A DNA stretch of 64,000 bases from Paenarthrobacter sp. GOM3 (GTDB lineage Bacteria; Actinomycetota; Actinomycetes; Actinomycetales; Micrococcaceae). Below the pieces are notes generated by a model. It was given only the letters and a program-made list of their open reading frames with translations. It ran no database searches and was not told the DNA's origin. The stretch lies in contig NZ_CP136562.1 of the NCBI RefSeq assembly GCF_018215265.2, forward strand, positions 1,612,001 through 1,676,000, written 5' to 3'. Below, piece by piece: positions 5,217-27,186 of this stretch. A program made the translations under genes and the position numbers. Each line of letters opens with the position of its first letter. Within the stretch, counting starts at the first letter, position 1.

Positions 5217-6616
5217 CCGCCACCATGATCAAGGAATTCAGGCTACCGGACCTTGGCGAAGGCCTGACCGAATCGGAAATCCTGAGCTGGAAGGTGGCCG
5301 TGGGGGACACCGTCACGCTGAACCAGGTCATCGCCGAGGTGGAAACCGCCAAGGCTGTGGTGGAGTTGCCCTCGCCCTTCGCCGGAACCGTGGCCGCCCT
5401 TCATGAGCAGCCCGGCACTGTGGTGGAAGTCGGCAAGCCGATCGTGTCCTTCGAGGTGGACGACGCCGGGTCCTCCAACGGTGTCGCCGTCACCGGCGGC
5501 AGTGGCTCGGCCGCCGTCGGACGTGGTGAAGCTGCCGGAAGTGGTGCCCCGACGGAAACTGCAGGCACGGAGGTGAGCCCGGCGAAACGCGAGCCCAACC
5601 TGGTGGGGTATGGGGCCGTCGTCGAACATACCGGCCGTCCCACCCGTCGCGCCCGCGGCGTGATTCGTGAAGCCGTGTCCAAACCTGCAGTTCCCCAGCA
5701 GCCGCGAGCGGTGCCCGTCGCCGCGCCGGAAGTTGGGGCGGTCATCGCTGAGCGGCCCCGCTCCACTCCGCCTGTCCGCAAGCTGGCCCGCGACCTGGGT
5801 GTGGACCTTGAGTCGGTTCCCGGGAGCGGGCCTGGGGGACTCATTACCAGGGAGGACGTCCAGAACTCCCTGGGTGCACCGGAACCGACTACCGGCGCTC
5901 CAGCAGCGCAGGGGGAAAGGGAAACCCGGACGCCAATCAAGGGGGTACGGAAGTTCACTGCCGCTGCGATGGTTCAAAGCGCCTTCACCGCACCCCATGT
6001 GACCGAATTCCTCACGGTTGACGTCACGGCGACCATGGACCTTCTGGCCCGGCTCAAGGGCAACAAGGCATTCGAGGGCTACAAGCTGACGCCGCTGACC
6101 ATCGCATCCAAGGCCGTGCTCGTAGCGCTCCGGAACAATCCCACGTTGAACTCGCGGTGGGATGAGGCCAGTCAGGAGATTGTGCAGTTCAACTACGTGA
6201 ACCTGGGCATCGCCGCTGCAACGCCACGCGGCCTGACCGTCCCGAACATCAAGGATGCGGACCGGTTGACACTGCGTGAGCTGTCAACCGCGCTGACTGA
6301 ACTGACGGACACCGCACGTGCAGGCAAGACGTCTCCGTCGGATCTTTCAGGAGGGACCATTTCCATCACCAACATTGGAGTGTTCGGGATCGATGCCGGA
6401 ACGCCCATTCTGAATCCGGGGGAGGCCGCCATTGTCGCCCTCGGGGCTGTGCGGAAGGCTCCGTGGGTTGTGAACGACGAACTTGCGATCCGCCAGGTCA
6501 TGTCGCTCAGCCTGTCCTTCGACCACCGACTGGTGGACGGCGAACAGGGCTCGCGGTTCCTCGCAGATCTCGGTGCCATCCTGTGCGACCCGGCCATGGT
6601 CATGACCATGATCTGA
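5213..6616 (+). CDS. bkdC: Dihydrolipoamide acyltransferase E2 of the branched-chain 2-oxo acid dehydrogenase
   Basis: The 467-residue core protein carries the acyl group on lipoate and transfers it to CoA. Domains in order: one lipoyl domain (residues 5-80, lipoyl Lys in VETAKAVVEL near residue 43), an Ala/Pro/Gly linker, a peripheral subunit-binding domain (PVRKLARDLGVDLESVPGSG, about 186-205), a second linker, and the catalytic domain ending in SFDHRLVDGEQG (about 431-442), which holds the active-site His and Asp. The E3 lipoamide dehydrogenase gene is not here, as in other actinobacteria. It is the last gene of the bkd operon, with a hairpin after the stop. Confidence 0.9.
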   Translation: MTATMIKEFRLPDLGEGLTESEILSWKVAVGDTVTLNQVIAEVETAKAVVELPSPFAGTVAALHEQPGTVVEVGKPIVSFEVDDAGSSNGVAVTGGSGSAAVGRGEAAGSGAPTETAGTEVSPAKREPNLVGYGAVVEHTGRPTRRARGVIREAVSKPAVPQQPRAVPVAAPEVGAVIAERPRSTPPVRKLARDLGVDLESVPGSGPGGLITREDVQNSLGAPEPTTGAPAAQGERETRTPIKGVRKFTAAAMVQSAFTAPHVTEFLTVDVTATMDLLARLKGNKAFEGYKLTPLTIASKAVLVALRNNPTLNSRWDEASQEIVQFNYVNLGIAAATPRGLTVPNIKDADRLTLRELSTALTELTDTARAGKTSPSDLSGGTISITNIGVFGIDAGTPILNPGEAAIVALGAVRKAPWVVNDELAIRQVMSLSLSFDHRLVDGEQGSRFLADLGAILCDPAMVMTMI

Positions 6617-6633
6617 AGCCCCTGAAGCTGCGC

Positions 6634-6686
6634 CGGCCCATCCCTTTACGAGTGCTTGCAGGAAACTGCAGCCAAGGGGTGGGCCG
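6634..6686. terminator. Bidirectional terminator between convergent bkdC and epimerase genes
   Basis: CGGCCCATCCC (6634-6644) pairs with GGGGTGGGCCG (6676-6686) with one mismatch; an inner GCAG/CTGC stem lies in the loop. The position between two convergent stops supports termination in both directions. Confidence 0.5.
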
Positions 6687-6714
6687 TCGCGCGTCAGGGC
6701 CTCTTTAGGACGCC

Positions 6715-7587
6715 TCAGTCTTCGGTAGGTGTGGTCCGGTTCGAGTGCACGTCACGCCAACTGTGCTCAGGTTCGAATCCCAAGAGCCTACGGGCCTTGT
6801 CGATGGAGAGCATCGTTTCGTGCTCGCCAAGATCCTTCAAAACCTCGACGCCGGGAAAGACTTCCGCGGCCAGTTCGGCGCTGCTCCGACCCATCACGGT
6901 ATCGGCGGCGGCGATGATGAAGGTCTCAAAGCCCGGTTGCGCATGTTCCAGGGCCCGGACCACCGCGAGGGCGCCATCCCGGGCATCGATGTAGCCCCAG
7001 AGGTTCCATTTACGCAAGGATGCATCGGAGTCGAAAGACGGGAACGCCTCGTAGTCTTCCGGGTCCATGACGTTGGAAAAGCGCAGGGCCGTAATGCTCA
7101 AGTCCGGGTCCCAGCGGGTGAGCTGGATTGCCATTTGCTCCTCGAGGTGCTTGACCAACGAGTACGTGCTTTCGGGGCGCGCCGCATACTCTTCATCGAC
7201 TGGAATGTAGGGTGGGTCGACGTCGAAGGGCAGGCCAAGCACCGTCTCGCTTGAGGCGTAGACGACCTTCTTGATCCCGGCTCTACGAGCGGCTTGGAAG
7301 ACGTTGTACGTCGAGACCATGTTGTTCTCGAATATAGCGGCGTCCGGTGCCAAACCCGGTGCCGGGATAGCAGCCAAGTGGACGATTGCGTCCAAGCCGC
7401 TGTGTTGATCGTCCAAGCCCATGATGACGTCAACGACCTGCCCATAATTGCGGAGGTCTACGTTGACATAGCCGCGGCCACGAGCGCCAACTCTGTCCAT
7501 GTTAAGGACTTGGTGACCATCCTGCGTCAGCCGCCGGACCACGCTCCTGCCCAGCTTTCCGCTTCCGCCCGTGACGGCAATCTTCAT
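6715..7587 (-). CDS. NAD(P)-dependent epimerase/dehydratase (extended SDR)
   Basis: The 290-residue product begins with the Rossmann motif TGGSGKLG (residues 6-13), then the acidic residue after the second strand (NMDRVG), and has the SDR catalytic YSLVK and the Ser/Thr-rich ASSETV strand. These are features of extended short-chain dehydrogenases that act on sugars or nucleotide sugars. The substrate cannot be told. ATG at 7587 is preceded by GGAG at good spacing; the frame stays open upstream, but that stretch does not resemble the family. It is flanked by the bkd operon and the DUF222-HNH gene and seems unrelated to leucine catabolism. Confidence 0.8.
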   Translation of the reverse strand: MKIAVTGGSGKLGRSVVRRLTQDGHQVLNMDRVGARGRGYVNVDLRNYGQVVDVIMGLDDQHSGLDAIVHLAAIPAPGLAPDAAIFENNMVSTYNVFQAARRAGIKKVVYASSETVLGLPFDVDPPYIPVDEEYAARPESTYSLVKHLEEQMAIQLTRWDPDLSITALRFSNVMDPEDYEAFPSFDSDASLRKWNLWGYIDARDGALAVVRALEHAQPGFETFIIAAADTVMGRSSAELAAEVFPGVEVLKDLGEHETMLSIDKARRLLGFEPEHSWRDVHSNRTTPTED

Positions 7588-7974
7588 AGTGAGCTCCTGG
7601 TCGATGTCAGTAGGTGGATGGGACTGCTCCCAGCGTATGTGGCGGGTGGTTGGCTGCCCAGCCCCGGGGCTGGCCCTGTGGAACCTAGGTCTCCCGTTCC
7701 CACCCAGGCGCCGGGGCCTGCATGGACACCAGGTCCCCCCAGACGCAGGTCCTGCAAGGTCACCCGGTTCGGCAATGTCATCCGGCCTGAGGCCATCGTC
7801 TGGTTCGGAGAACCGTCCGGGCGCGTTCAATTCGGCCCTCAACGGCTTAAACCAGTCCCCGGGATGAGACTTTGGCTCCGGGATGAAACCTTCACTCCGG
7901 GACCAAGGCAGCGCTGTTTGATTGTCCACCTGCTCGGGCCGTTGTCCTTGTCCCTGCCGCTTGGGGAGGTGTTT
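7588..7974. other. 387-bp non-coding stretch between epimerase and HNH genes
   Basis: No credible gene is seen. The open minus-strand frame that continues from the epimerase up to 7929 lacks family similarity and a good start. The stretch contains a 19-bp tandem repeat (7859-7908) and the presumed epimerase promoter. Confidence 0.5.
7859..7908. repeat. 19-bp imperfect tandem repeat, about 2.6 copies
   Basis: Units begin CCGGGATGA at 7859 and 7878 and CCGGGACCA at 7897, an exact 19-bp period. The first two units differ at a few positions in their second half. It lies in the intergenic stretch upstream of the epimerase gene. Confidence 0.6.
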
Positions 7975-9642
7975 TTATGTTCTGAGGGGTGTGTGGTGGT
8001 GGTTGCGTCGGGGTGTTTGTGTGGGGTGGGGGGATGAACCAGGGGTGCCGTTGGTGTTGGTGATGGTCCATTGTTCTTTGTGGATGAGGTGGTGGTGGTG
8101 GGAGCAGAGGAGGGTTCCGTTTTCTGTTCCTGTGGTTCCGCCGTGGGACCAGTAGGTGATGTGGTGGGTTTCGCACCAGGGTGCGGGCATGGTGCAGTCG
8201 GGGAAGGCGCAGCCGCCGTCGCGGGCGGTGATGGCTTTGCGGATGTGGGGTGGGAAGATCCGGGTGGTGCGGCCGATGTCCAGGACGCGGGAGTCGGTGC
8301 CGAGCAGGACGGGGATGATGTCGGCGTCGCAGGCGATTTTGCGGATGGTGTTGGGGTGGAGGGGGCCGGTGAACGTCGCGGTGCCGGTGCCGAGCGATGG
8401 TGTGCTGGTGCTGGTGTTGAGCGGAGGCAGGGCAGGGCCGGTCCCACGGGGCTGGGTGTGCGGGGCTGGTTGGTCGTGTCCCGTGAGTTGGTCCAGGAGG
8501 TCTTGGTGGCTGATGGTGACGGTGAGTTGGGGTCGGAGTCCGCCGTTGGTGGGGAGTTTGCCGGTGGTCATTGCGAGGTTGCAGGCGCCGACGAGGCCGT
8601 CGAGGAGTTTTTGTGCCCGGGAGCGTCGGTCCAGGTCCGGGCTGGTGGGTTGGGTGGTGTGTCGGGGGTTGGTGGCGGTGTTCATGACGGTGGTGAGGGT
8701 TTCGTATTGTTCGGTGGTGGCGAAGATTTCGAGGTGGTGCAGTCCGTAGCGGCGTCTGCGGCGGAGGAAGGTGCCTTGGAGTTGGTGGAGGGCTTCTTCG
8801 GAGGGTTCGGTTCCGTCGTGGTCGATCCTGTCGGTCCAGCGTTGGGCCGTTTTGGTGAGGAAGTCCGGGTCGCTTTCGGTTGCGGTTCTGGTCAGGGCGT
8901 GTTCCATGCGGGTGATGGTTTCGGTGTCGGTGAGGTGCCGGACTTTATCCAGGGCGGTGCTGATGATCGTGGCTGAGCGGGAGGGTATTTGGGCTGATCC
9001 GATCGCGTCGGCGAGGGCTTCCCGTCGGGCGGGGAGGGGTTGTCCGGCTATTCCGGGCTGGGGGAGGACCTCGGCGGCGAGGGCGAGTCTGCGGCGGGCT
9101 TCGCTGATACTGATCCGCAATCGGGCGCGGAGGAACTGTGCCGTGTTCCGGTAGCCGTCATCGAGCAGGCTAACCTCACTGCCCTGGCTGGTACCAGCCC
9201 GGTCCTGGGTGTTTCCCGGGGCATCGGTCCATCCCGTGCGCCAGCCGGGGTCGGCGGAGGACGGGGCACCTCTAGCTTCATTCCGGGTCCGCTCCACGGT
9301 CTGGGCCGCGACCACCTGCAAATACTCCAACGACCGCGAAAGCTCCTCGACCCGCCCAGCAAAATCCGCAGCCTCCACCAATCCCAGCAGCCCGGACTCT
9401 GCCATCGCGGAGGCGCGCAGCTCTTCCAAAGCCGTGGCGCTGTCCTCCAACGCTTCTGAAAGGCAGCCAAGCGGAGCGATGGTGTCTGGCCTATCCGATG
9501 TCCCTTTGCTAGCGGAGGCTGTGGATCTTCCGGCCGGACCTTCGAGCCGCATCGTTGCCGGGCCTTCATCGGGGGCAACAAGCAGCGTACCGGCGCCCGA
9601 CGAACCCGGCCGCCGCTGCCATACCTGCCCATCGCTTTCCAT
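7975..9642 (-). CDS. DUF222 domain protein with C-terminal HNH endonuclease domain
   Basis: The 555-residue product belongs to the 13E12-repeat/DUF222 family that is abundant in actinobacteria. A long alpha-helical DUF222 region spans about residues 40-400, followed by an HNH nuclease module near residues 465-515 (ITARDGGCAFPDC, CETHHITYWSHGG, LLCSHHHHLIHK) with paired Cys and His metal ligands. The family is thought to be mobile or self-propagating, but the role is unproved. The coding strand is unusually C-rich over G, particularly in the 3' part, unlike the neighbours, which fits acquisition. It lies between the bkd operon and the leucine-degradation operon. Confidence 0.88.
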   Translation of the reverse strand: MESDGQVWQRRPGSSGAGTLLVAPDEGPATMRLEGPAGRSTASASKGTSDRPDTIAPLGCLSEALEDSATALEELRASAMAESGLLGLVEAADFAGRVEELSRSLEYLQVVAAQTVERTRNEARGAPSSADPGWRTGWTDAPGNTQDRAGTSQGSEVSLLDDGYRNTAQFLRARLRISISEARRRLALAAEVLPQPGIAGQPLPARREALADAIGSAQIPSRSATIISTALDKVRHLTDTETITRMEHALTRTATESDPDFLTKTAQRWTDRIDHDGTEPSEEALHQLQGTFLRRRRRYGLHHLEIFATTEQYETLTTVMNTATNPRHTTQPTSPDLDRRSRAQKLLDGLVGACNLAMTTGKLPTNGGLRPQLTVTISHQDLLDQLTGHDQPAPHTQPRGTGPALPPLNTSTSTPSLGTGTATFTGPLHPNTIRKIACDADIIPVLLGTDSRVLDIGRTTRIFPPHIRKAITARDGGCAFPDCTMPAPWCETHHITYWSHGGTTGTENGTLLCSHHHHLIHKEQWTITNTNGTPGSSPHPTQTPRRNHHHTPLRT

Positions 9643-17641: not shown

Positions 17642-18499
17642 ATGCCTTCTCCCGATTCGTCTCCCCACCAAGCTGCAGCGCCTTTCACCATGGGCCCGGC
17701 GCTCTTGTTCTGCCCAGCCGACCGGCCGGAGCGTTTCGGGAAGGCCGCCGACCGGTCCGATGCCGTGATCCTGGACCTGGAGGACGCGGTAGCTCCAGCG
17801 GACAAGTCCAGGGCCCGCGACGCTATCATCGGGCAGCCGGACGGGGAGCGTTTGGATCCCGCGAGAACCATCGTCCGCGTCAACCCGGTGGGCACGCCCG
17901 GGTTTGAGGCAGATCTGGAAGCCTTGGCCGCAACGCCGTACCGCACTGTGATGCTGGCCAAAGCGGAAAGCGCTGCGCAGCTTACTGCGTTGGCGGGGTA
18001 CCAGGTCATAGCGCTGTGTGAAACGGCTGCAGGCATCGTGAACGCCGCCGCGATCGCGGCGCAACCGAACGTCGTCGGCCTGATGTGGGGTGCCGAGGAC
18101 CTGCTGGCCTCCTTGGGTGGCCTGTCCAGCAGGAACGACGACGGCGGGTACCGGGCTGTCGCGCTGCACTCACGTTCCGCTGTGCTGCTTGCCGCTAAGG
18201 CTGCGGGCAAGGAAGCCATTGATTCGGTGTATGTCAACATCCCGGACCTTGACGGTCTGGCGGTTGAGGCGCAGGACGCCGTGGCCAGTGGCTTCGGGGC
18301 GAAGGCCTGCATCCACCCCAACCAAGTGGCCGTGGTGCGGGAGGCGTATGCCCCCACTCTCGAAGCAGTCGAGGCGGCCACTGAGCTGCTCGACGCAGCC
18401 GCAGCGGCCGGCACTGGCGTGTTCCAGTTCAAGGGCAAGATGATCGACGGCCCCATCCTCAAGCACGCCCAAGCCACCCTTCGCCGGGCCGGACGCTAA
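17642..18499 (+). CDS. CitE-like CoA ester lyase (HpcH/HpaI aldolase family)
   Basis: The 285-residue TIM-barrel protein has VILDLEDAVAPADKSRARD (metal and substrate site), IALCETAAGIVNA and MWGAEDL, which define the citrate-lyase-beta/CitE-like group. Rv2498c, at the same place in M. tuberculosis, is reported to be a beta-hydroxyacyl-CoA lyase, so cleavage of a 3-hydroxy-3-methylglutaryl-CoA to acetyl-CoA and acetoacetate is the likely role here. ATG 17642 is chosen because TAGGAA precedes it; a GTG at 17612 is in frame but poor. It is the last gene of the operon. Confidence 0.85.
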   Translation: MPSPDSSPHQAAAPFTMGPALLFCPADRPERFGKAADRSDAVILDLEDAVAPADKSRARDAIIGQPDGERLDPARTIVRVNPVGTPGFEADLEALAATPYRTVMLAKAESAAQLTALAGYQVIALCETAAGIVNAAAIAAQPNVVGLMWGAEDLLASLGGLSSRNDDGGYRAVALHSRSAVLLAAKAAGKEAIDSVYVNIPDLDGLAVEAQDAVASGFGAKACIHPNQVAVVREAYAPTLEAVEAATELLDAAAAAGTGVFQFKGKMIDGPILKHAQATLRRAGR

Positions 18500-18617: not shown

Positions 18618-19721
18618 CTAGGCGCGTACCGCCGTCGAGAGTTCCGCCAGATCCACCGTGGCGGGCCGTGCGGCCGTGCTCTTGATGGCTACTGCTTGCC
18701 CGCTGCGGGCAGATTCCAGCACCGACTCCATGACTTCCAAGGCATGGAAGGCCAACTGTCCACCGGCACGTGGCTCCTGTCCTGCCGGTGTGGCCGCGAG
18801 GTCGGCAATGCCAAAGCCCCGTCCCGAGTCCACATAGCCTGCCGATACCGGGAGCGTCTCCCAGTCCTCGGCGCCAAGCGCGAAAAGCTGTACATCGCCG
18901 TCGAAGTAGTTGGGGTCGGGCACAACCAACGAGCCTTTTTCGCCGTGGATTTCGATGTTGGGGCTCTTGGTCTTGACCGCGTCGAAGCTCATGAACAGCG
19001 TGGAAAGGGCTCCTGACGCATGGACCAGGACACCCGTGACGTGCGAGTCAATGGCAACGGGTACTTTTTGGCCTTCACGCGGCCCCGAGCCGATGGTCCG
19101 TTCGTCGCGGGTATGGCTGGCCACGCCGACCACCGAAACCACAGGTCCGAGCAGCGTGACCAGCGCCGAGACGTAGTACGGGCCCATGTCAAGGAGCGGC
19201 CCACCCCCGGGCTGGTAATAGAAATCGGGGTTGGGATGCCACCGCTCGTGCCCGGGAGTCGCCATGCTCGCCGTGGCTGAGATGGGTGCGCCGATCAGGC
19301 CGTCGTCGATCGCCTTACGGGCAGTCTGGATGCCGGTACCCAGCACGGTGTCCGGCGCGCAACCAACCACTACCCCGGCAGCTGCTGCCGCATCGAGTAC
19401 TTCCCGGGCCTCCGCCGTCGTTGCTGCCAGAGGCTTTTCGCCGTAGACGGACTTGCCCGCGGCAATGGCCTTCAACGCAATGTCGGCGTGGGCGGCGGGA
19501 ATGGTCAGGTTGAGGACGAGCTCAACGTCATTTGCGGCCAGGAGCTCGTCCACCGTGAGGGCCCGGACGCCGTCGTAGGATTCGGCGACGGCCTGCGCGC
19601 GGGCAGGATCGAGGTCGGCAACGGCTACCAAATTAATGGCATCCAGCCGACGGAAGTTGCTCAGGTACTGCGCGATGATGGCGCCGCAGCCGATGATTCC
19701 TACATTTAGCGGCTTGCCCAC
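18618..19721 (-). CDS. Gfo/Idh/MocA family oxidoreductase (last gene of the sugar operon)
   Basis: The 367-residue product has the N-terminal Rossmann motif GIIGCGAIIAQYL and the family signature GEKPLAATTAEAREV (about residues 90-104), followed by the alpha/beta substrate domain. The family oxidises or reduces sugars and cyclitols with NAD(P), often at C2 or C3. GTG at 19721 starts VGKPLNVGIIGCG and overlaps the ThuA-like gene by 16 bp. It is the second such enzyme in this operon and differs strongly from the first, so the two probably act at different steps. Confidence 0.85.
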   Translation of the reverse strand: MGKPLNVGIIGCGAIIAQYLSNFRRLDAINLVAVADLDPARAQAVAESYDGVRALTVDELLAANDVELVLNLTIPAAHADIALKAIAAGKSVYGEKPLAATTAEAREVLDAAAAAGVVVGCAPDTVLGTGIQTARKAIDDGLIGAPISATASMATPGHERWHPNPDFYYQPGGGPLLDMGPYYVSALVTLLGPVVSVVGVASHTRDERTIGSGPREGQKVPVAIDSHVTGVLVHASGALSTLFMSFDAVKTKSPNIEIHGEKGSLVVPDPNYFDGDVQLFALGAEDWETLPVSAGYVDSGRGFGIADLAATPAGQEPRAGGQLAFHALEVMESVLESARSGQAVAIKSTAARPATVDLAELSTAVRA

Positions 19722-20407
19722 AGCATGCCCCTTTCGATGATGGTGCGGACGTTGCTGTCCTGGAGGATTTCCACGCGGTGGCCGGGGGTGCAGACGAAGA
19801 TCCTGCCCTTGCCCCACTGGCGGGTCCAGAGAGCCGGAGAGGTGACTTCACGGTTCCACGGATCCCATTCCCGGACTTTCTGGGTGGTGGTTGCCAGGAC
19901 GTCGATGTAGTCGTCGGACAGGACCCAGTACTGCTCCGTGACGAGGTCGAAGTCGCCAATGCCCTGGGTGATGGGGTGTTCGGCGGCCGCTGGAAGCATG
20001 TTCACCGTGTACGGGACGTAGTTGTCGGACTGTTCTCCCGTTAGTTCGTCAGGGTGCTTGCCCGGGTGGCAGGCAAACTGGCCGCCAATCAGGTGCAAAT
20101 AATCCGAGTTGTTGCGGTAGGAATCGGCGATGCCACCGTGCCAGCCCGCGAGTCCCGTGCCATTCTCGACGGCGGTGCGGAGACCCTCGAACTCGTCCTT
20201 CTCGATGGTTGTCATCGTCATGCACTGCACGATCAGGTCGACGCCCGCCATGTAGTCCGGATCGGCGTAGATCTTGGGGGATTCCTCCACCCGGACGTCG
20301 TAGCCGTTGTCCCGCAGGTAGGGGATGAACAGTTCGGTGGCTTCCACCGGCTGGTGTCCGTCCCAGCCGCCGCGAACCACCAGCGCTGTCTTGTTGTTGC
20401 TTGTCAT
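19706..20407 (-). CDS. ThuA-like domain protein
   Basis: The 233-residue product fits the ThuA-like (class I glutamine amidotransferase-like fold) family: TALVVRGGWDGHQPVE at the start, GTGLAGWHGGIADSYRNN in the middle and IFVCTPGHRVEIL at the end. ThuA of Sinorhizobium acts with the Gfo/Idh enzyme ThuB in trehalose use through keto-sugars. Here it likewise sits beside Gfo/Idh genes. The precise reaction is unknown. ATG at 20407 with GGAAACC upstream. Confidence 0.8.
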   Translation of the reverse strand: MTSNNKTALVVRGGWDGHQPVEATELFIPYLRDNGYDVRVEESPKIYADPDYMAGVDLIVQCMTMTTIEKDEFEGLRTAVENGTGLAGWHGGIADSYRNNSDYLHLIGGQFACHPGKHPDELTGEQSDNYVPYTVNMLPAAAEHPITQGIGDFDLVTEQYWVLSDDYIDVLATTTQKVREWDPWNREVTSPALWTRQWGKGRIFVCTPGHRVEILQDSNVRTIIERGMLWASR

Positions 20408-20457
20408 GGTTTCCTTCGTTTCGGGGCGTTGTGTCGTTGGAGTCGGGTTTGTTGCTG

Positions 20458-21462
20458 TCAGCGCGTCGCAAACGCAGCATCGAAAGCTGCCGCCGGGGGA
20501 CGTATGGCGGCGAGCCCCCGAACCATGTCCAGCGCCTGGGGAGCGCCGACCAGCCGGTCCATGCCAGCGTCCTCCCATTCGATGCTGGTGGGTCCTTCGT
20601 AGCCAATGGCGTTCAGTGTGCGGAAGATCGGCTCCCAGTTCACGTCCCCGTGCCCGGCAGTGACGAAGTCCCATCCGCGGCGGGGATCAGCCCACGGCAG
20701 GTGGGATCCAAGGCGTCCGTTGCGGCCGTTAAGTTGTCGGACGGATTCCTTGACGTGGACATGGAAGATCTTGTCCGCAAAGTCCTGGAGGAACATCACG
20801 GGGTCCAGGTCCTGCCACAGGAAATGGGATGGATCGAAGTTCAGGCCAAAACCTTCCCTGTGTCCGATCGCTTCGAGGGCGCGTTTCGCCGTCCAGTAGT
20901 CGTAGGCAATCTCGGATGGATGGACTTCCAACGCAAAACGGACGCCTACCTCATCAAACACGTCCATGATGGGATTCCAGCGGTCGGCAAAGTCCTGGTA
21001 GCCGCGCTCGATCATGGCGTCCGAGGCCGGCGGGAACATCGCCACGCATTTCCAGATGGACGAGCCCGTGAAACCTGTGACCGTCTTGACTCCCAGCCTG
21101 GCGGCAGCGCGGGCCGTGGTCTTCATGCTTTCGGCGGCCCGCTGCCGCACGCCTTCCGCCTGGCCGTCGCCCCAAACCGCCGGCGCAAGTATGTCCCTGT
21201 GCCGCTCATCGATCGGGTCATCGCACACTGCTTGTCCGGTCAGGTGGTTGGCGATGGCGTGCACGCTGAGGTGGTGCTTATCCAGGACGTCCAGTTTTGC
21301 CTGGAGGTAGGCGTCGTCCTCGACAATGCGCTGTGGATCCAGATGGTCGCCCCAGCAGGCGATCTCCAAACCGTCAAAGCCCCACTCTCCAGCCAGCCTC
21401 GCCAGTTCCTCGAAAGGCAGGTCGGCCCACTGTCCGGTGAAGAGGGTGATGGGTCGGGTCAT
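20458..21462 (-). CDS. Sugar phosphate isomerase/epimerase (xylose-isomerase-like TIM barrel)
   Basis: The 334-residue TIM-barrel protein belongs to the AP-endonuclease-2/xylose-isomerase-like fold. Metal-ligand regions are visible: [35 protein letters not shown] and [11 protein letters not shown]. Members isomerise or epimerise sugars, dehydrate inosose, or eliminate from 3-keto-glycosides. ATG 21462 has AAAGGAAC upstream, with the previous gene ending 10 bp away. The substrate is unknown; the neighbouring dehydrogenases suggest an oxidised sugar. Confidence 0.85.
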
Positions 21463-21472
21463 GATGTTCCTT

Positions 21473-22669
21473 TCAGACGTTCTGCCAGCGGCTTGCGTTG
21501 TCAGCGCTCGCCTCGACGGCGGCCAGCACCTTTTGTACCTGCAAGGCATCCGCGAACGACGGTGACGGCTGCTCGCCTGCGCCGATGGCCGTCACGAGGT
21601 CCACTACCTGGTGGGTAAACCCGTGCTCATAACCCAGCCCATGGCCGGTGGGCCACCAGTTGGCGGTGTAGGGATGGGAGGGTTCGGTGACCATGATCTT
21701 CCGGAAACCTGCATCGGGTTCCAGTGCAGCGTCGTAGAACTGCAGGGAGTTCATGTCCTCGAAGTCGAAGGCTACTGATCCCTTGGTGCCATTGAGCTCC
21801 AGGCGCATGGCGTTCTTGCGTCCCAAGGCGAACCGGGTGGCCTCAAAGATACCGATAGGGCCGGCGGCAGCACCGTCGTCGTGGGTTGATTCGAAGCGGG
21901 CGGTGAACAGCGCTGCGTCGTCCACAGTCACAGGGCCCTTGGGGCCGTCCGCGCCACCGTGGCCGCCGAGGCCAACAAAGTCGCCGCCCACTGGGCGCTC
22001 CTTCACGAACGTCTCCAAAAGTGCGGAGACCCCGGTGATGTTGAGCCCAGTAATCCATTGTGCGGCGTCGATGCTGTGCGCACCGATGTCACCCAGCGAA
22101 CCGGACCCGGACTTCGACTTGTCCAGCCTCCAGGTCAACGGGGCGTCCGCGTCGCTGAGCCAGTCCTGCAGGTATTGCGCGCGGACGTGCCTGATCTCGC
22201 CCAAACGGCCGTCATCCACCATCCGCCTGGCGAGGGCCAGTGCAGGTGTCCTGCGGTAGCTGAAGCCGCACATGGACAGCACACCCCGCTCGGCTGCGGC
22301 CTTGGCCACCGCCGTCATCTTCTCCGCCTCTTCCACGGTGTTGGCGAGGGGCTTTTCGCAGAGGACGTGCTTGCCGGCCTCGAGGGCGGCGATGGCGATC
22401 TCGGCGTGGGTGTTGCCGGGGGTGCAGATATCGATGAGGTCGATGTCGTCCCGTTCGATCAACTTGCGCCAATCGGTCTCCACGCTGTTCCAACCGTATT
22501 TGCTGGCTGCTGCCTGGACGCCGTCGGCATTCCTGCCGGCCACTGCCGTGAGTTCAGGGACGAGGGGCAAGTCGAAGAACCGCGGCGCCGTACGCCAGGC
22601 GTGGGAATGCGCGGCACCCATGAACGCGTAGCCGACCATGCCGACCCGCAGCGGTTTCGTTTCAGTCAT
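21473..22669 (-). CDS. Gfo/Idh/MocA family oxidoreductase, sugar dehydrogenase
   Basis: The 398-residue product begins [18 protein letters not shown] (NAD-binding), has [19 protein letters not shown] and the signature [15 protein letters not shown] (about residues 98-112), and a [18 protein letters not shown] segment with the catalytic region Asp and His. Its layout is like that of levoglucosan dehydrogenase and related enzymes that oxidise the C3 hydroxyl of glycosides; I base this on remembered family features, not on a search. It is the first catabolic gene after the transporter genes, 30 bp downstream of a permease. Confidence 0.85.
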
Positions 22670-22699
22670 GACGGATTCCTTTCTGCTGGCAGGTGCCAG

Positions 22700-23599
22700 T
22701 CACTTGCTGAAGCCTGCGGTCAGGCCGCTGAGCAGTTGGCGGCGTGCCACCACGTAGACCACCAGCAACGGAAGGGTAGCGAGGACAACGGAGGCGAGCA
22801 CCGCTGGAATGTTGACGCTGAACTCACCTTGGAACGTCCACAGCGACAGGGGGAGGACCCGGGTATCGGGGCTCTGGGTGAGGATCAGCGGAAACAGGAA
22901 TCCGTTCCAGACGTTGAGTGCGTTGTAAATCCCCACGGTGATGACGGCCGGCTTGGTCATCGGCAAGGCGAGCCGCCACAGCATGGCCCAGTCCGAGCAG
23001 CCATCCAAGCGCATCGACTCGAACAACTCGTTGGGTACGTCCCGCAGGAAGTTGGAAAGGATCAGCACCGAAATGGGAATAGCGAAGGCAATGGAGGGCA
23101 GGATCAAAGCCAGCAAGGTGTCGTACATGTGGGCTTTGGTGATCATCCAGTAGATCGGGATGATCGTGGCGTGAAGCGGAATAGCCAGGCCCAGCAGGAA
23201 GATGTTGTTGGTCAAGCCGAGGAATTTGCCCTTGCCGCGGACGATCGCGTACGCGGCCATGAAGGAGACCAGCAAAGCCGGAACCACACTGCCCAAGGTG
23301 ACGATCAGGCTGTTGGCAAAGTACTTGGCGAAGTCGTTTTCCAGAACCAGTTTGTAGTTGTCCAACGTCGGTTCGGCGGGCGGCAGCATGGGGTTGGACG
23401 TGAAGAAGCCTGCTTGGTTCTTCAAGCTGGTAATGACCACGTAGTAGACCGGCACTATGATCACCGCGAGCCAGGCCCAACCGCCCAGGCCGCCCAGGAT
23501 GTTGGGCCGCGACCTGCCGGGCGGCGGAGTCCGACGGCGGGTGGCGGCTGGCGTTGGCGGTGCTGCCGGTGACGTGGGGAGTTGTGTGGTGGAAGCCAT
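22700..23599 (-). CDS. Carbohydrate ABC transporter permease (MalG type)
   Basis: The 299-residue inner-membrane protein has six predicted helices and the EAA-like loop ELFESMRLDGCSDWAMLWRLALP that contacts the ATPase. An N-terminal Pro/Thr/Arg-rich tail of about 30 residues precedes the first helix. It pairs with the MalF-type permease, whose stop overlaps this start by one base. No ATP-binding subunit is encoded nearby, so a shared MsiK-like ATPase is expected. Confidence 0.9.
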   Translation of the reverse strand: MASTTQLPTSPAAPPTPAATRRRTPPPGRSRPNILGGLGGWAWLAVIIVPVYYVVITSLKNQAGFFTSNPMLPPAEPTLDNYKLVLENDFAKYFANSLIVTLGSVVPALLVSFMAAYAIVRGKGKFLGLTNNIFLLGLAIPLHATIIPIYWMITKAHMYDTLLALILPSIAFAIPISVLILSNFLRDVPNELFESMRLDGCSDWAMLWRLALPMTKPAVITVGIYNALNVWNGFLFPLILTQSPDTRVLPLSLWTFQGEFSVNIPAVLASVVLATLPLLVVYVVARRQLLSGLTAGFSK

Positions 23600-24534
23600 T
23601 ACGCACCTTCCAATTGGCTGGCATTGCGGTTCTTGCCGCCGAGTCGTTGGAGGAACAGGGCCAACGCCAGGCCGATGACCACGAGGATCACTCCCAGGGC
23701 GCTCGCCGCTCCCATGTCGTTGGCTTTGAATCCGGTGAGGTACATGTGCAGTGGCAGCAAGCGGGTGGAATACCCCGGGCCGCCGGCAGTGAGGACGAAG
23801 ACCAGGTCGAAGTAGGCCAGGGAACCAACCACCATCAGGGTGGACGAGGTAATGATCGTGTACTTCAACTGCGGGAGGGTGATGTTGAAGAACTGCTGGA
23901 CCCTCCCGGCACCGTCGATCTGCGCGGCTTCATACAGCGAAGTGGGTATTTGCCTGACGCCGCCTTGGTAGATCAGGGTGTGGAACGGAACGAACTGCCA
24001 GGCGATCACGAAGACCACCACGAACAGCACGAGGTCCGAGTTGCCCAGCCAGTCCTGGGCCAGGAAGGGCAGGCCCAGGCCAGGACCGAGGCCGAAGTTC
24101 GGATCCAGGAGCGCTTTGAAGGCAATGGCCACGGCCGCGGAGGACAGAAGCAGCGGCACAAAGTAGAGCACTGCCAAAGCGGCACGGTACTTCTGGCTGG
24201 CAGCGGTGAAGACACCCAGCAGGAGGCTGATGGGGGCCTGGACGATGAACGAGAAGAACATGATCTTGGCCGTTACCAGCAGGGCGTTACCCGTAACGGG
24301 GTCAGCCAGGACGGTTTGCCAGCTGGAGAGTCCATCGAGCTTAATTTCGCCGAGCCCGTCCCAGCGGGTGAAGCTCAGGAACAGGACGCCCAGCAGGGGA
24401 AGAATCGCAAAAAGCGTGAAGAAAGCGAGGGCCGGGACTGCCAGCCACCCCGACGGACCCTTTTCGAGGGTCCGTCGGGACGGCTGCTCCCGCCGGGAGG
24501 TCTGCTCCCGGGTAGTTGCAGTAATGGTCGACAC
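23599..24534 (-). CDS. Carbohydrate ABC transporter permease (MalF type)
   Basis: The 311-residue protein shows six hydrophobic segments and the EAA loop SLYEAAQIDGAGRVQQFFNITLPQLK near residue 215. It starts 3 bp after the stop of the substrate-binding protein gene and is translationally coupled to the next permease. It forms the membrane channel of a CUT1-type sugar importer. Confidence 0.9.
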   Translation of the reverse strand: MSTITATTREQTSRREQPSRRTLEKGPSGWLAVPALAFFTLFAILPLLGVLFLSFTRWDGLGEIKLDGLSSWQTVLADPVTGNALLVTAKIMFFSFIVQAPISLLLGVFTAASQKYRAALAVLYFVPLLLSSAAVAIAFKALLDPNFGLGPGLGLPFLAQDWLGNSDLVLFVVVFVIAWQFVPFHTLIYQGGVRQIPTSLYEAAQIDGAGRVQQFFNITLPQLKYTIITSSTLMVVGSLAYFDLVFVLTAGGPGYSTRLLPLHMYLTGFKANDMGAASALGVILVVIGLALALFLQRLGGKNRNASQLEGA

Positions 24535-24537
24535 GGA

Positions 24538-25857
24538 TTACTTCCCGATCGTCGCGTTCATGGTTGAGGCGAACTGCTCGGGCGTGATCTTCTTCAGGAA
24601 AATCTGGTCAAGGTTAGCCAGCATCGCGTCGCCCTGTGCCGGGCTGAGGGCCTGGTCCCAGGACAGGGTGAAATCGGGGGCGTCCTTGGCCATGCCGTAG
24701 ACGTACGTCAGGAAGTCCTTGTCCGGGGATGCGGCAAGTTTGTCTTCGATGCCCGTGACCACCGGCACTGCTCCGGAGTCGATCAAGGCCTTGACGTTCT
24801 CGTCATTGAACATCCCGTCCTTGACGTAGTCCAGTGCTGTCTTCTTTTGTTCCTCGGTGGCCTTGGAGGAAACCGACCAGAAGTTGGAAGGATTTCCCAC
24901 GACGTTTGCCGGGTCTCCCTTGCCGCCTTCGATGGTGGGGAAGGGGGTGTAACCGAGCTTGCCGCTCTTGACGAAGTCGGCGGCGTCCTTCTTCATTCCC
25001 TGGTAGATCCAGCTGCCCTGCAGGATCATAGCCGCCTTGCCGGTGTAAAGGAGGGCCTGGTCTGCGTTGCTGTCCGCCGCAATCGAGGAGAACCCGTTGA
25101 TGAAGCCGCCAGCGTCCACCAGCTCCTGGATCTTGGTCAGCGCCTCGATGACTGCGGGATCGGACCAGGCATCCGGCTTGTTGGCTGCGATTTTGGCGAA
25201 GACTTCGGGTCCGCCGATGCGGTCTACGAGGTACTCGAGCCACATGAGGTCCGGCCATTTCGATTGTCCGCCCAGCGAGAACGGAGCTACGCCCGCGGCC
25301 TTGAACTTGGGCACCAGTGCCATGAGTTCATCCCAGGTCTTGGGTGCTTCGGCGCCGATCTTGTCGAAGACTTCCTTGTTGTAATAGAGGACCACCGGCT
25401 GCACTTTATTGTTGGGCAGGGCGTAGGTCTTGCCATCGATGACGCCACTTTCCAGGATCGACGGGAGGTAGCGGCTCTGGACATCTGGGTTCTCTTTGAG
25501 GAATCCGGTCAGGTCATCCACTTGTCCGGCGTCGACGTAGGACTTGAGGACGCCGCCTCCCCAGCCGTAGACCAGCGTGGGACCCTGCCCGGCGCCGACG
25601 GCCGTGCGCACCTTGGTCTTGTAGGCATCGTTTGCGAAGAAATCGAGCTTGATGGAGGAATCGGGGTGTGCCTTGTTCCAGGAGTCCACGGAGGCCTGGA
25701 AGACTGGTTGGTCACCGCCTGTCAGCCCCCACATGGTGGCCGAATCCGCGGAGGCTCCGCTTCCGGCAGGGCCCGAGGAGCCGCAGGCTGCGAGCGAGAT
25801 TGACAAGACGGCTGCCGAGACCGCCATTCCGGCGGTGCGCAACTTCAGATTATTCAT
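24538..25857 (-). CDS. Extracellular sugar-binding lipoprotein of an ABC transporter
   Basis: The 439-residue solute-binding protein has a signal peptide with lipobox ISLAACGSS (Cys near residue 25), so it is anchored to the outer face of the membrane. The mature part matches family 1 binding proteins (SVDSWNKAHPDSSIKLDFFANDAY; LVYGWGGGVLKSYVDAG; AAMILQGSWIY). It is the first gene of the operon and so nearest to the LacI-type operators. The ligand is unknown; the downstream dehydrogenases suggest a sugar, glycoside or cyclitol. Confidence 0.92.
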   Translation of the reverse strand: MNNLKLRTAGMAVSAAVLSISLAACGSSGPAGSGASADSATMWGLTGGDQPVFQASVDSWNKAHPDSSIKLDFFANDAYKTKVRTAVGAGQGPTLVYGWGGGVLKSYVDAGQVDDLTGFLKENPDVQSRYLPSILESGVIDGKTYALPNNKVQPVVLYYNKEVFDKIGAEAPKTWDELMALVPKFKAAGVAPFSLGGQSKWPDLMWLEYLVDRIGGPEVFAKIAANKPDAWSDPAVIEALTKIQELVDAGGFINGFSSIAADSNADQALLYTGKAAMILQGSWIYQGMKKDAADFVKSGKLGYTPFPTIEGGKGDPANVVGNPSNFWSVSSKATEEQKKTALDYVKDGMFNDENVKALIDSGAVPVVTGIEDKLAASPDKDFLTYVYGMAKDAPDFTLSWDQALSPAQGDAMLANLDQIFLKKITPEQFASTMNATIGK

Positions 25858-25965
25858 GTGCTGTTTCCATTCGTCCTACGGGCTCGACGCTGATGGCCCG
25901 GCTGCTCGTATAAAAAGCCGCACTCTGCGGGTAGGGATCAACTTCGATCGCCTGTACCCTGAAAG

Positions 25966-26001
25966 CTTTTTCGAAATGTTTCGGAAGTCCTTTCGAAAGT
26001 G
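25966..26001 (-). promoter_or_regulatory. Tandem LacI-type operators upstream of the sugar operon
   Basis: Three related elements lie head to tail: CTTTTTCGAAATG (25966-25978), ATGTTTCGGAAG (25976-25987) and CCTTTCGAAAGTG (25989-26001). All centre on TTTCGAAA or a one-base variant. They are about 110-145 bp before the binding-protein start. Confidence 0.55.
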
Positions 26002-26116
26002 CCCACCAAATTTAGCCGTGAGGCACGTCACCGTCAAGGGTGTTTTTGCGGAAATTTCCCGCCAGCCTTTCGAGATTGACGCCGTGGAGGACGCTGCTGC
26101 ACACTAAAAACATCCG

Positions 26117-26132
26117 AAACTTTTCGAAAGCA
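26117..26132 (+). promoter_or_regulatory. LacI-type operator upstream of the regulator gene
   Basis: AAACTTTTCGAAAGCA contains the same CTTTTCGAAAG core found in front of the divergent operon and lies 8-23 bp before the lacI start, consistent with autoregulation. A perfect palindrome GGAAATTTCC at 26050-26059 is a different element. Confidence 0.5.
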
Positions 26133-26139
26133 GGCTGCC

Positions 26140-27186
26140 GTGGTCCCCGACGACCGACCCTCAAAAATGACACTGTCCGCCGTGGCCCAAGAGGTCGGAG
26201 TGTCGGTCCCCACGGTCTCCAAGGTGGTCAACGGGCGTGCCGACGTGGCCCAGGGAACCCGTACACGGGTCCTGGAAGCGCTCCAGCGGACGGGCTATAA
26301 GACGCCGCTCCAACGCAAGGGCAAACCCGTGCAAAGGACGGTGGAAGCGGTATTCGACTCGTTGAATTCCGCCTACAACATGGAGATCCTCAACGGTGTC
26401 ATGGAGCAGGCCAATCTCTCCGGCATGGAAGTGGTCCTCTCTGTGACAGGCCTGCAGGCTCCGCCGTCCCTGGGGCCCGAGGAACGGGCGCAGCGCATGA
26501 TTGATGAAGGTCGCAGCGGAATGATCGTGGTCACCTCGGCTTTCGGGGCGACGCAGCTCGAAGCATTCCAGCGACGCCAGATTCCCATCGTGGTGATCGA
26601 CCCCCTCAATCCGCCACCTTCGAACCTGTTCAGCGTGGGTGCGAGCAACTGGGCCGGCGGCAAAGCAGCTGCCATGCACCTCCTCGAACTTGGCCACCGC
26701 CGGATCGCGTTCATCGGCGGCCCGGACACGGCAGAGTGCAGCCAGGCCCGCCTGCATGGCTACATGGCTGCCCTGATGGCCGAAGGCATCACGGTAGAAC
26801 ACGAGTACGTCTCGGCTGGCAAGTTCAGGCCGGAGAACGGAGCCGCTGCCTTCAAGGCGCTGCTGGCTTTGGAGGACCCGCCCACGGCGATCTTCGCAGG
26901 CAGCGACAGTATCGCCCTGGGCGTCCTGGCTGAGGCGCGGCGACAGGACGTGCGGATTCCCGAAGAGATGAGCCTGGTGGGCTTCGACGGGACCTACCAA
27001 GCAGAAGAGTCCATCCCGCCGCTGACTTCAGTGAGCCAGCCGCTGCAGGAGATAGGCCGATCCGCGTTGAACTTCATCCTCCGCCAAATGCAAGGCGAAG
27101 AAATCGACTCCCGAAGGGTGGAACTGGCAACCCACCTCGTGGTTCGCGAGTCCACTGCGCCGCCACGGGCCACAGCGCTACGGTAG
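26140..27186 (+). CDS. LacI family transcriptional regulator of the sugar operon
   Basis: The 348-residue product has the LacI helix-turn-helix (LSAVAQEVGVSVPTVSKVVNGR, about residues 12-33), the hinge region and a periplasmic-binding-like sensor domain (IVVIDPLNPP; HRRIAFIGGPDTAE; IFAGSDSIALGVL; LVGFDGTYQAEE). It diverges from the sugar ABC/catabolic operon. It is expected to bind the TTTCGAAA palindromes between the two and release them on binding a sugar. GTG at 26140 is chosen; ATG 26167 is too far into the HTH region. Its stop overlaps the convergent next gene by 9 bp. Confidence 0.9.
   Translation: MVPDDRPSKMTLSAVAQEVGVSVPTVSKVVNGRADVAQGTRTRVLEALQRTGYKTPLQRKGKPVQRTVEAVFDSLNSAYNMEILNGVMEQANLSGMEVVLSVTGLQAPPSLGPEERAQRMIDEGRSGMIVVTSAFGATQLEAFQRRQIPIVVIDPLNPPPSNLFSVGASNWAGGKAAAMHLLELGHRRIAFIGGPDTAECSQARLHGYMAALMAEGITVEHEYVSAGKFRPENGAAAFKALLALEDPPTAIFAGSDSIALGVLAEARRQDVRIPEEMSLVGFDGTYQAEESIPPLTSVSQPLQEIGRSALNFILRQMQGEEIDSRRVELATHLVVRESTAPPRATALR

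What the first reader, a model, noticed from the sequence alone, without database searches (positions are those of the whole stretch)
18618..27186. Seven-gene oxidative sugar or glycoside system without hydrolase or kinase
A sugar-binding lipoprotein, two permeases, two dissimilar Gfo/Idh/MocA dehydrogenases, an isomerase-fold protein and a ThuA-like protein form one tightly spaced operon under a LacI regulator. The combination fits 3-keto-glycoside chemistry (oxidise, eliminate or isomerise, reduce), as in ThuAB and levoglucosan routes, but this set and its substrate are not one I can name.
Basis: inference. Interest (0 to 1): 0.7.

Follow-up and report, generated by a model that had tools for sequence, protein, structure and literature searches.

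The report
Oxidative sugar-cleaving operon using ThuA
A soil bacterium carries a tightly regulated set of genes that most likely takes up a sugar-containing compound and splits it by oxidising it first instead of using an ordinary hydrolase; the probable cutting enzyme, ThuA, belongs to a large family whose chemistry I could not find established.

Summary
Seven - strand genes (18618-25857) and a divergent LacI gene (26140-27186) form one unit. The operator CGAAANNTTTCG occurs exactly twice in the 4.46 Mb genome, both times in the LacI/transporter gap, and is conserved.

GfoA is related to levoglucosan dehydrogenase but below that family's cut-off; the genome has a true one elsewhere. The TIM barrel is related to a 2-hydroxy-3-keto-glucal hydratase.

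Main new evidence: at 99 loci of the second dehydrogenase (GfoC), the gene directly upstream is ThuA at 67, an eliminase-type TIM barrel at 24, neither at 8. This genome has both versions.

Best reading: a variant of the oxidise/cleave/hydrate/reduce glycoside pathway in which ThuA does the cleaving. The substrate is unknown.

Against: two loci carry both ThuA and the eliminase type in one gene run; the split is one event on the GfoC tree; 0 of 15 ThuA loci with longer flanks have the hydratase; no catalysis was tested. I found no paper giving ThuA's reaction in the held library; the key 2013 paper is not held.

The parts
26140..27186 (+). LacI-family regulator
   Evidence: Pfam LacI + Peripla_BP_3; divergent from the operon; the gap between holds both operators
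25972..25983 (.). operator O1, CGAAATGTTTCG
   Evidence: exact CGAAANNTTTCG; one of only two exact sites in the genome
26115..26126 (.). operator O2, CGAAACTTTTCG, next to the LacI start
24538..25857 (-). sugar-binding lipoprotein (SBP)
   Evidence: SBP_bac_1, 128.5 bits
23599..24534 (-). ABC permease PermF
   Evidence: BPD_transp_1
22700..23599 (-). ABC permease PermG
   Evidence: BPD_transp_1
21473..22669 (-). GfoA, LgdA-like Gfo/Idh/MocA dehydrogenase (proposed C3 oxidation)
   Evidence: NF052479 levoglucosan DH 359.6 bits, cut-off 650; PDB 4h3v 577 bits, 6a3f 306 bits (6a3f shares its sequence with 6a3i, which PMC10066097 names as LGDH of P. phenanthrenivorans)
20458..21462 (-). HYD, TIM barrel (proposed 2-hydroxy-3-keto-glycal hydratase)
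   Evidence: PDB 2zds 531.5 bits (that it is SCO6571 is recalled), 8ro4 (2-hydroxy-3-keto-glucal hydratase) 131.3 bits
19706..20407 (-). ThuA (PF06283), proposed 3-keto-glycoside cleaving enzyme
   Evidence: Pfam ThuA 156.9 bits; slot analysis; H90, H144, H210 invariant in 25 sequences; model pLDDT 88.5
18618..19721 (-). GfoC, second Gfo/Idh/MocA protein (proposed 3-keto-sugar reductase)
   Evidence: Pfam; 43% identical to GfoC' of the paralogous set; EKP and DMGPYY motifs

Best explanation
This is a dedicated, LacI-controlled operon for uptake and non-hydrolytic cleavage of a glycoside. The lipoprotein and permeases import it (the ATPase is encoded elsewhere). GfoA oxidises the C3 hydroxyl of the glycosyl unit with NAD+. 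ThuA then breaks the glycosidic bond of the 3-keto compound, most likely by elimination, giving the aglycone or second sugar and a 2-hydroxy-3-keto-glycal. HYD adds water to give the 3-keto-sugar, and GfoC reduces that to the plain sugar, returning NAD+. Shown here: gene set, order, conservation, dedicated operators, family relationships, and that ThuA and the eliminase-type TIM barrel take the same place upstream of GfoC. Inferred: every catalytic step and the substrate.
For: (1) Families: GfoA near levoglucosan dehydrogenase; HYD related to 8ro4, with E-x-H-P, D-P-S-H-F and E-W-E segments shared in the alignment. (2) The same genome has a paralogous set SBP/2 permeases/short TIM/GfoC'/GfoA'/HYD' (L099), whose short TIM matches PDB 8bvk at 82 bits (8bvk has 259 residues like AtOGE in PMC10628242, that they are the same is my inference); no ThuA was found in those 19 kb. 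(3) Of 99 GfoC loci the upstream slot holds ThuA at 67, the short TIM at 24, neither at 8, both at 0. (4) Of 80 HYD loci ThuA lies within 10 kb at 41, the short TIM (cut 45 bits) at 5, both at 0. (5) Of 10 ThuA proteins from HYD loci that were scanned, 2 are fused to PF06439 3-keto-disaccharide hydrolase (L074 beside HYD, L078 about 6 kb away). (6) Priestia plasmid L097 has LacI, a GfoA relative (48%), ThuA and GfoC (48%) in a row in another phylum. (7) Operators: a site in 15 of 18 gaps, all 15 with an exact one, against 0.135 of 18 expected in shuffles; exactly two in the genome.
Against: Two of the 24 loci with the short TIM in the slot also carry ThuA on the same strand: L179 reads short TIM, GfoC, ThuA, HYD, GfoA in a row, and L170 ThuA, HYD, short TIM, GfoC. 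There ThuA is an addition, not a replacement, so the two may differ in substrate or in step. The ThuA/short-TIM split needs only one change on the GfoC tree with the 8 'neither' rows left out (7 with three labels): one event kept by descent. Of 15 ThuA-slot loci with about 11 kb read, 0 have HYD and 1 has GfoA (L201); of 21 short-TIM-slot loci in the same set (L163, L173 and L174 are shorter) 6 have HYD and 5 GfoA. The Priestia row also lacks a HYD match. So ThuA-GfoC often stands without a linked hydratase; if ThuA were a hydrolase, HYD would not be needed. LgdB2, a hydratase, was suggested to be bifunctional (PMC7676230, discussion), so HYD might do the cleaving. 34 of 80 HYD loci have neither ThuA nor short TIM. 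A fusion with a hydrolase domain can also mean that ThuA does another step.
Confidence: 0.46

Rival explanations
1. Two self-contained modules in one operon: ThuA-GfoC acts like thuAB (GfoC itself oxidises and later reduces, ThuA cleaves), while GfoA-HYD treats another substrate or the other half of it.
For: 0 of 15 ThuA-slot loci with about 11 kb have HYD and 1 has GfoA; ThuA with GfoC on plasmids of Phyllobacterium and Deinococcus, no HYD match; 58 of 80 HYD loci lack the four-enzyme set. L179 holds both cleaving candidates.
Against: All four enzymes stay together at 22 of 80 HYD loci, mostly Micrococcaceae, three Curtobacterium (L039, L053, L060, in another order) and L084; the paralogous L099 set joins GfoC', GfoA' and HYD' with an eliminase-type TIM.
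Confidence: 0.25
2. HYD both eliminates and hydrates, as suggested for LgdB2, and ThuA does a side step (for example handling the other product).
For: LgdB2 bifunctionality (PMC7676230, discussion); 34 of 80 HYD loci have neither ThuA nor short TIM; L170 and L179 hold ThuA beside the short TIM.
Against: ThuA takes the eliminase-type gene's slot next to GfoC at 67 of 99 loci; AtHYD was inactive on 3-keto-phlorizin (PMC10628242).
Confidence: 0.17
3. A levoglucosan pathway.
For: GfoA is 41% identical to the genome's own levoglucosan dehydrogenase.
Against: GfoA 359.6 bits against cut-off 650; a protein at 750.5 bits with an LgdB1-like TIM neighbour lies elsewhere (L101); the operon's one TIM barrel is of the HYD type.
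Confidence: 0.04
4. Cyclitol or ordinary monosaccharide catabolism (dehydrogenases plus isomerase).
For: The Gfo and TIM families include inositol enzymes (weak hits); a xylose isomerase cluster lies near HYD at 17 of 80 loci.
Against: IolG and IolE models score far under cut-off (68 and 108 of 355; 43 of 290); no kinase or aldolase in the unit.
Confidence: 0.06

Closest known systems
Levoglucosan pathway LgdA/B1/B2/C of Bacillus smithii (PMC7676230; abstract and discussion read)
   Same: Order of steps as proposed here; Gfo dehydrogenase; hydratase; second Gfo reductase
   Different: Cleavage there is by LgdB1; here no LgdB1-type gene, ThuA instead; GfoA under the LgdA cut-off
Levoglucosan loci of Paenarthrobacter LG01 and LG02 (PMC10066097; abstract, results and discussion read)
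   Same: Same genus as the nearest named relatives; LgdA, LgdB1, LgdC and orphan TIM barrels LgdB3, LgdB4, LgdB3 proposed as an LgdB2 substitute
   Different: Main text does not contain ThuA; whether HYD equals LgdB3 or LgdB4 was not tested (their sequences were not at hand)
Agrobacterium tumefaciens AtOGE/AtHYD pathway (PMC10628242; abstract, three sections and passages read)
   Same: HYD relative (8ro4, 131 bits); final Gfo reductase
   Different: First enzyme there is a flavoprotein GlycDH; cleavage by AtOGE; main text does not contain ThuA
thuEFGKAB of rhizobia (Ampomah 2013, not held; known from passages of citing papers, and recall)
   Same: ThuA plus Gfo with SBP and permeases under a LacI relative; 3-keto derivatives
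   Different: S. meliloti ThuA only 26% over 89 residues; ThuB nearer to GfoA (108 bits) than to GfoC (57 bits), no HYD match in 40 kb; an ABC ATPase ORF there (read by eye)
DUF1080 3-ketotrehalose/3'-ketolactose hydrolases (PMC9007349; passages)
   Same: Cleavage after oxidation at C3; the domain is fused to ThuA in L074 and L078
   Different: No DUF1080 among the operon proteins
Paralogous set L099 in the same genome
   Same: SBP, two permeases, GfoC', GfoA', HYD'
   Different: Short eliminase-type TIM, no ThuA found; a ROK-family gene nearby

Membership tests
Levoglucosan (Lgd) pathway | LgdA above NF052479 cut-off (650 bits) | tested here: not met
   359.6 bits; the genome's other copy 750.5
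Levoglucosan (Lgd) pathway | LgdB1-type eliminase beside it | tested here: not met
   one PF01261 gene in the unit, and it is the HYD type
Oxidise/cleave/hydrate/reduce glycoside pathway (wide sense) | sugar 3-dehydrogenase | tested here: inconclusive
   GfoA relative of LgdA; activity not tested
Oxidise/cleave/hydrate/reduce glycoside pathway (wide sense) | hydratase of 2-hydroxy-3-keto-glucal | tested here: inconclusive
   homology to 8ro4, E 4.3e-37; activity not tested
AtOGE pathway | AtOGE-type eliminase | tested here: not met
   the operon's only TIM barrel is the HYD type; the short TIM is in the L099 set
thuAB system | ThuA family protein | tested here: met
   PF06283 156.9 bits, cut-off 33.4
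thuAB system | orthology to S. meliloti ThuA and ThuB | tested here: not met
   no ThuA match at 1e-5 by tblastn, 28.5 bits pairwise; ThuB nearer to GfoA than to GfoC
thuAB system | growth on trehalose, maltitol, sucrose isomers | not testable with these tools
   needs growth tests

The most novel reading that the evidence does not exclude
ThuA is a new kind of glycosidic-bond-cleaving enzyme: a class I amidotransferase-like fold whose nucleophile-elbow position holds an invariant histidine (H90), which with H144 and H210 cleaves 3-keto-glycosides, and which has taken the place of the unrelated TIM-barrel eliminase in a reductase-linked slot.
Probability: 0.38. Interest if true: 0.68.

Novelty: new variant of a known kind. 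Interest (0 to 1): 0.5.

Why it matters
ThuA (PF06283) is a large family (6420 proteins at E 0.001 or better among 6827 candidates); the three solved relatives found by sequence are named ThuA-like, putative ThuA-like or hypothetical. If it cleaves 3-keto-glycosides, thousands of bacterial genes get a reaction, and another structural solution to oxidation-driven glycoside cleavage is added beside TIM-barrel eliminases and DUF1080 hydrolases. The operon is a clean test case: dedicated regulator, unique operators, and a paralogous eliminase-type set in the same genome.

Tried and rejected
Levoglucosan operon: rejected by score and by a better copy elsewhere. Direct thuAB orthology: rejected. Substrate from transporter: the SBP gave only hits under cut-off. 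Substrate from neighbours: a xylose isomerase cluster near HYD at 17 of 80 loci; 6 of those 17 were scanned and all 6 exceed the TIGR02631 cut-off; none in the window, L094-L102 or the 40 loci L162-L201 at 1e-30; no background rate was computed, so it stays a hint. An iterated short-TIM profile drew in unrelated TIM barrels and was dropped for a single-sequence search. With the 45-bit cut two weaker short-TIM hits were left out: L033 (37 bits) and L066 (40 bits); L066 also has ThuA, so 'both = 0' there depends on that cut. The structural second look at Foldseek's best 1000 chains listed ThuA-like structures and other amidotransferase-like domains, no assigned 3-keto enzyme among the 50 shown; a family absent there is not excluded. 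Sigma-70 and terminator scans gave 2 sites each, against 1.1 and 6.9 in shuffles. Searches for ThuA's reaction: (listings), then passages of PMC6683767 and PMC4765114; none gave it. Searches were on the pathway and SCO6571. Most subscription journals are not held.

How the 99 GfoC loci arose: 59 (L103-L161) are the tool's best matches; 40 (L162-L201) were picked by hand by identity before their neighbours were seen: 20 at 42-47% identity to look for short-TIM partners, 20 at 44-63%. The ratio 67:24 is therefore not a frequency. L103-L161 are at most about 4.1 kb, so they show the slot but not the wider unit. Some genomes give two loci; L103 is the window and L110 its paralog.

They set the ThuA-slot loci with long flanks at 15 (I had counted 13) and showed that L170 and L179 carry both genes in one same-strand run; I lowered the main and the novel odds for that (0.50 to 0.46, 0.42 to 0.38) and raised two rivals.
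Full report
OBSERVATION. Starts were refined with homologues. Among the proteins scanned there is no hydrolase, kinase or ABC ATPase. Downstream of the operon lies a convergent ORF ending at 18499; beyond LacI a gene with lipase maturation factor domains. The genome is a 4.46 Mb single contig, with the window at 1612001-1676000; the nearest named proteins are from Paenarthrobacter and Arthrobacter. All eight genes recur at 17 of 80 named loci.

REGULATION. An inverted repeat CGAAANNTTTCG lies at 25972-25983 and 26115-26126. In the window alone three matches with up to one mismatch are not surprising (17 of 100 shuffles reach three). The strong evidence is conservation and place: 18 LacI/SBP gaps were examined (17 of the 23 loci L009-L031, where both genes were found within 800 bp, plus the window); 15 hold at least one site, all 15 an exact one, against 0.135 expected per round in 200 mononucleotide shuffles with up to one mismatch; L022, L028 and L031 hold none. 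In the whole genome the exact pattern occurs at two places, both here, and the reversed control at none. So LacI is very likely a local, dedicated regulator.

FOUR RELATED SYSTEMS IN ONE GENOME. L101: LgdA above cut-off, LgdB1-like TIM and an interrupted LgdC-like Gfo, beside what reads like an ABC cassette and LacI (by eye). L099: SBP, two permeases, short TIM, GfoC', GfoA', HYD', a ROK gene, the short TIM matching 8bvk at 82 bits and 8tcs at 74 bits, no ThuA found. L100: LacI, SBP, two permeases, Gfo, ThuA of another subfamily, and a third GfoA relative. And the window. The window and L099 share three enzymes and the transporter type, and differ in ThuA against short TIM.

SLOT TEST. At 99 GfoC loci the same-strand gene within 400 bp upstream is ThuA at 67, short TIM at 24, neither at 8 (L105, L106, L108, L123, L164, L196, L199, L200), both at none. 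L199 has ThuA on the downstream side. But L179 reads short TIM, GfoC, ThuA, HYD, GfoA in one run, and L170 ThuA, HYD, short TIM, GfoC: 2 of 24 short-TIM loci also carry ThuA. On the GfoC tree the two labels need one change, with the 8 'neither' rows left out (quick method, SH-aLRT 99 on the split); counting three labels it needs 7. This is strong coupling but one exchange. It fits replacement of one cleaving enzyme by another, and also two reductase lines whose partners differ in substrate (for example alpha against beta) or in duty.

HYD-ANCHORED LOCI. Of 80 loci, GfoA lies within 10 kb at 67 (same strand within 300 bp at 54), ThuA at 41 (same strand within 3 kb at 37), GfoC at 23, short TIM at 5; ThuA and short TIM together at 0, neither at 34 (Fisher p 0.024, but the loci are related, so p is only a guide; see the cut-off note under tried and rejected). 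The four enzymes are together at 22 of 80. ThuA appears in several forms: window type with GfoC, a second type directly after HYD (L042, L043, L048, L059), and large multidomain proteins between or beside GfoA and HYD, probably secreted (by their domains; no signal-peptide tool was run). Of 10 ThuA proteins scanned, 2 carry PF06439 3-keto-disaccharide hydrolase, 5 carry a GSDH domain, 3 are ThuA alone. This repeated company ties ThuA to 3-keto-sugar chemistry beyond the one exchange on the GfoC tree.

MECHANISM AND LIMITS. The best reading is oxidation (GfoA), cleavage (ThuA), hydration (HYD), reduction (GfoC), matching pathways in PMC7676230 and PMC10628242. HYD's presence argues for elimination by ThuA. 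Against that, 0 of 15 ThuA-slot loci with about 11 kb have HYD and 1 has GfoA, and the Priestia row LacI, GfoA relative, ThuA, GfoC has no HYD match, so ThuA may hydrolyse, or HYD is supplied elsewhere. No reaction was measured. The papers seen here do not give ThuA's reaction; thuAB of Paenibacillus JDR-2 are listed under maltose use and proposed to form 3-keto-maltose (PMC4765114, passages).

VERDICT. A real, conserved and dedicated operon, a new variant of a known pathway type. Its value is that it turns the open question of what ThuA does into a direct bench test.

Noticed in passing
L010, L011, L013, L017, L027 against L009, L012: SBP (56-60%) and permeases (68-73%) are much more diverged from the window than the enzymes (72-96%); in L010 the enzymes are 92-96% identical. 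The transporter part seems to have been exchanged.
   Followed up: no
L101:9986-11137 (genome C1 about 2152063-2153124): The LgdC-like gene of the genome's levoglucosan cluster is interrupted (one TAG inside; two pieces). Described only.
   Followed up: partly
L100:5574-5855 and 5856-9628: A C-terminal fragment of a GfoA relative (126 bits) and a stretch without called genes follow the thu-like cluster, as if part was duplicated and something inserted.
   Followed up: no
17 of 80 HYD loci; between GfoA and HYD at L081, L082, L087: A xylose isomerase cluster recurs beside GfoA/HYD (6 of 6 scanned above cut-off), a hint that the released sugar may be xylose or glucose.
   Followed up: partly
L179 and L170: Both ThuA and the short TIM in one same-strand run with GfoC and HYD.
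   Followed up: partly
L028 and L071: Records titled Vibrio cholerae 35D and UNVERIFIED_ORG Bacillus sp. AZ43 carry loci that look actinobacterial; probably mislabelled or contaminated. Both were kept in the counts.
   Followed up: no
window 18618-25857: No ABC ATPase gene in the unit; probably a shared ATPase elsewhere.
   Followed up: no
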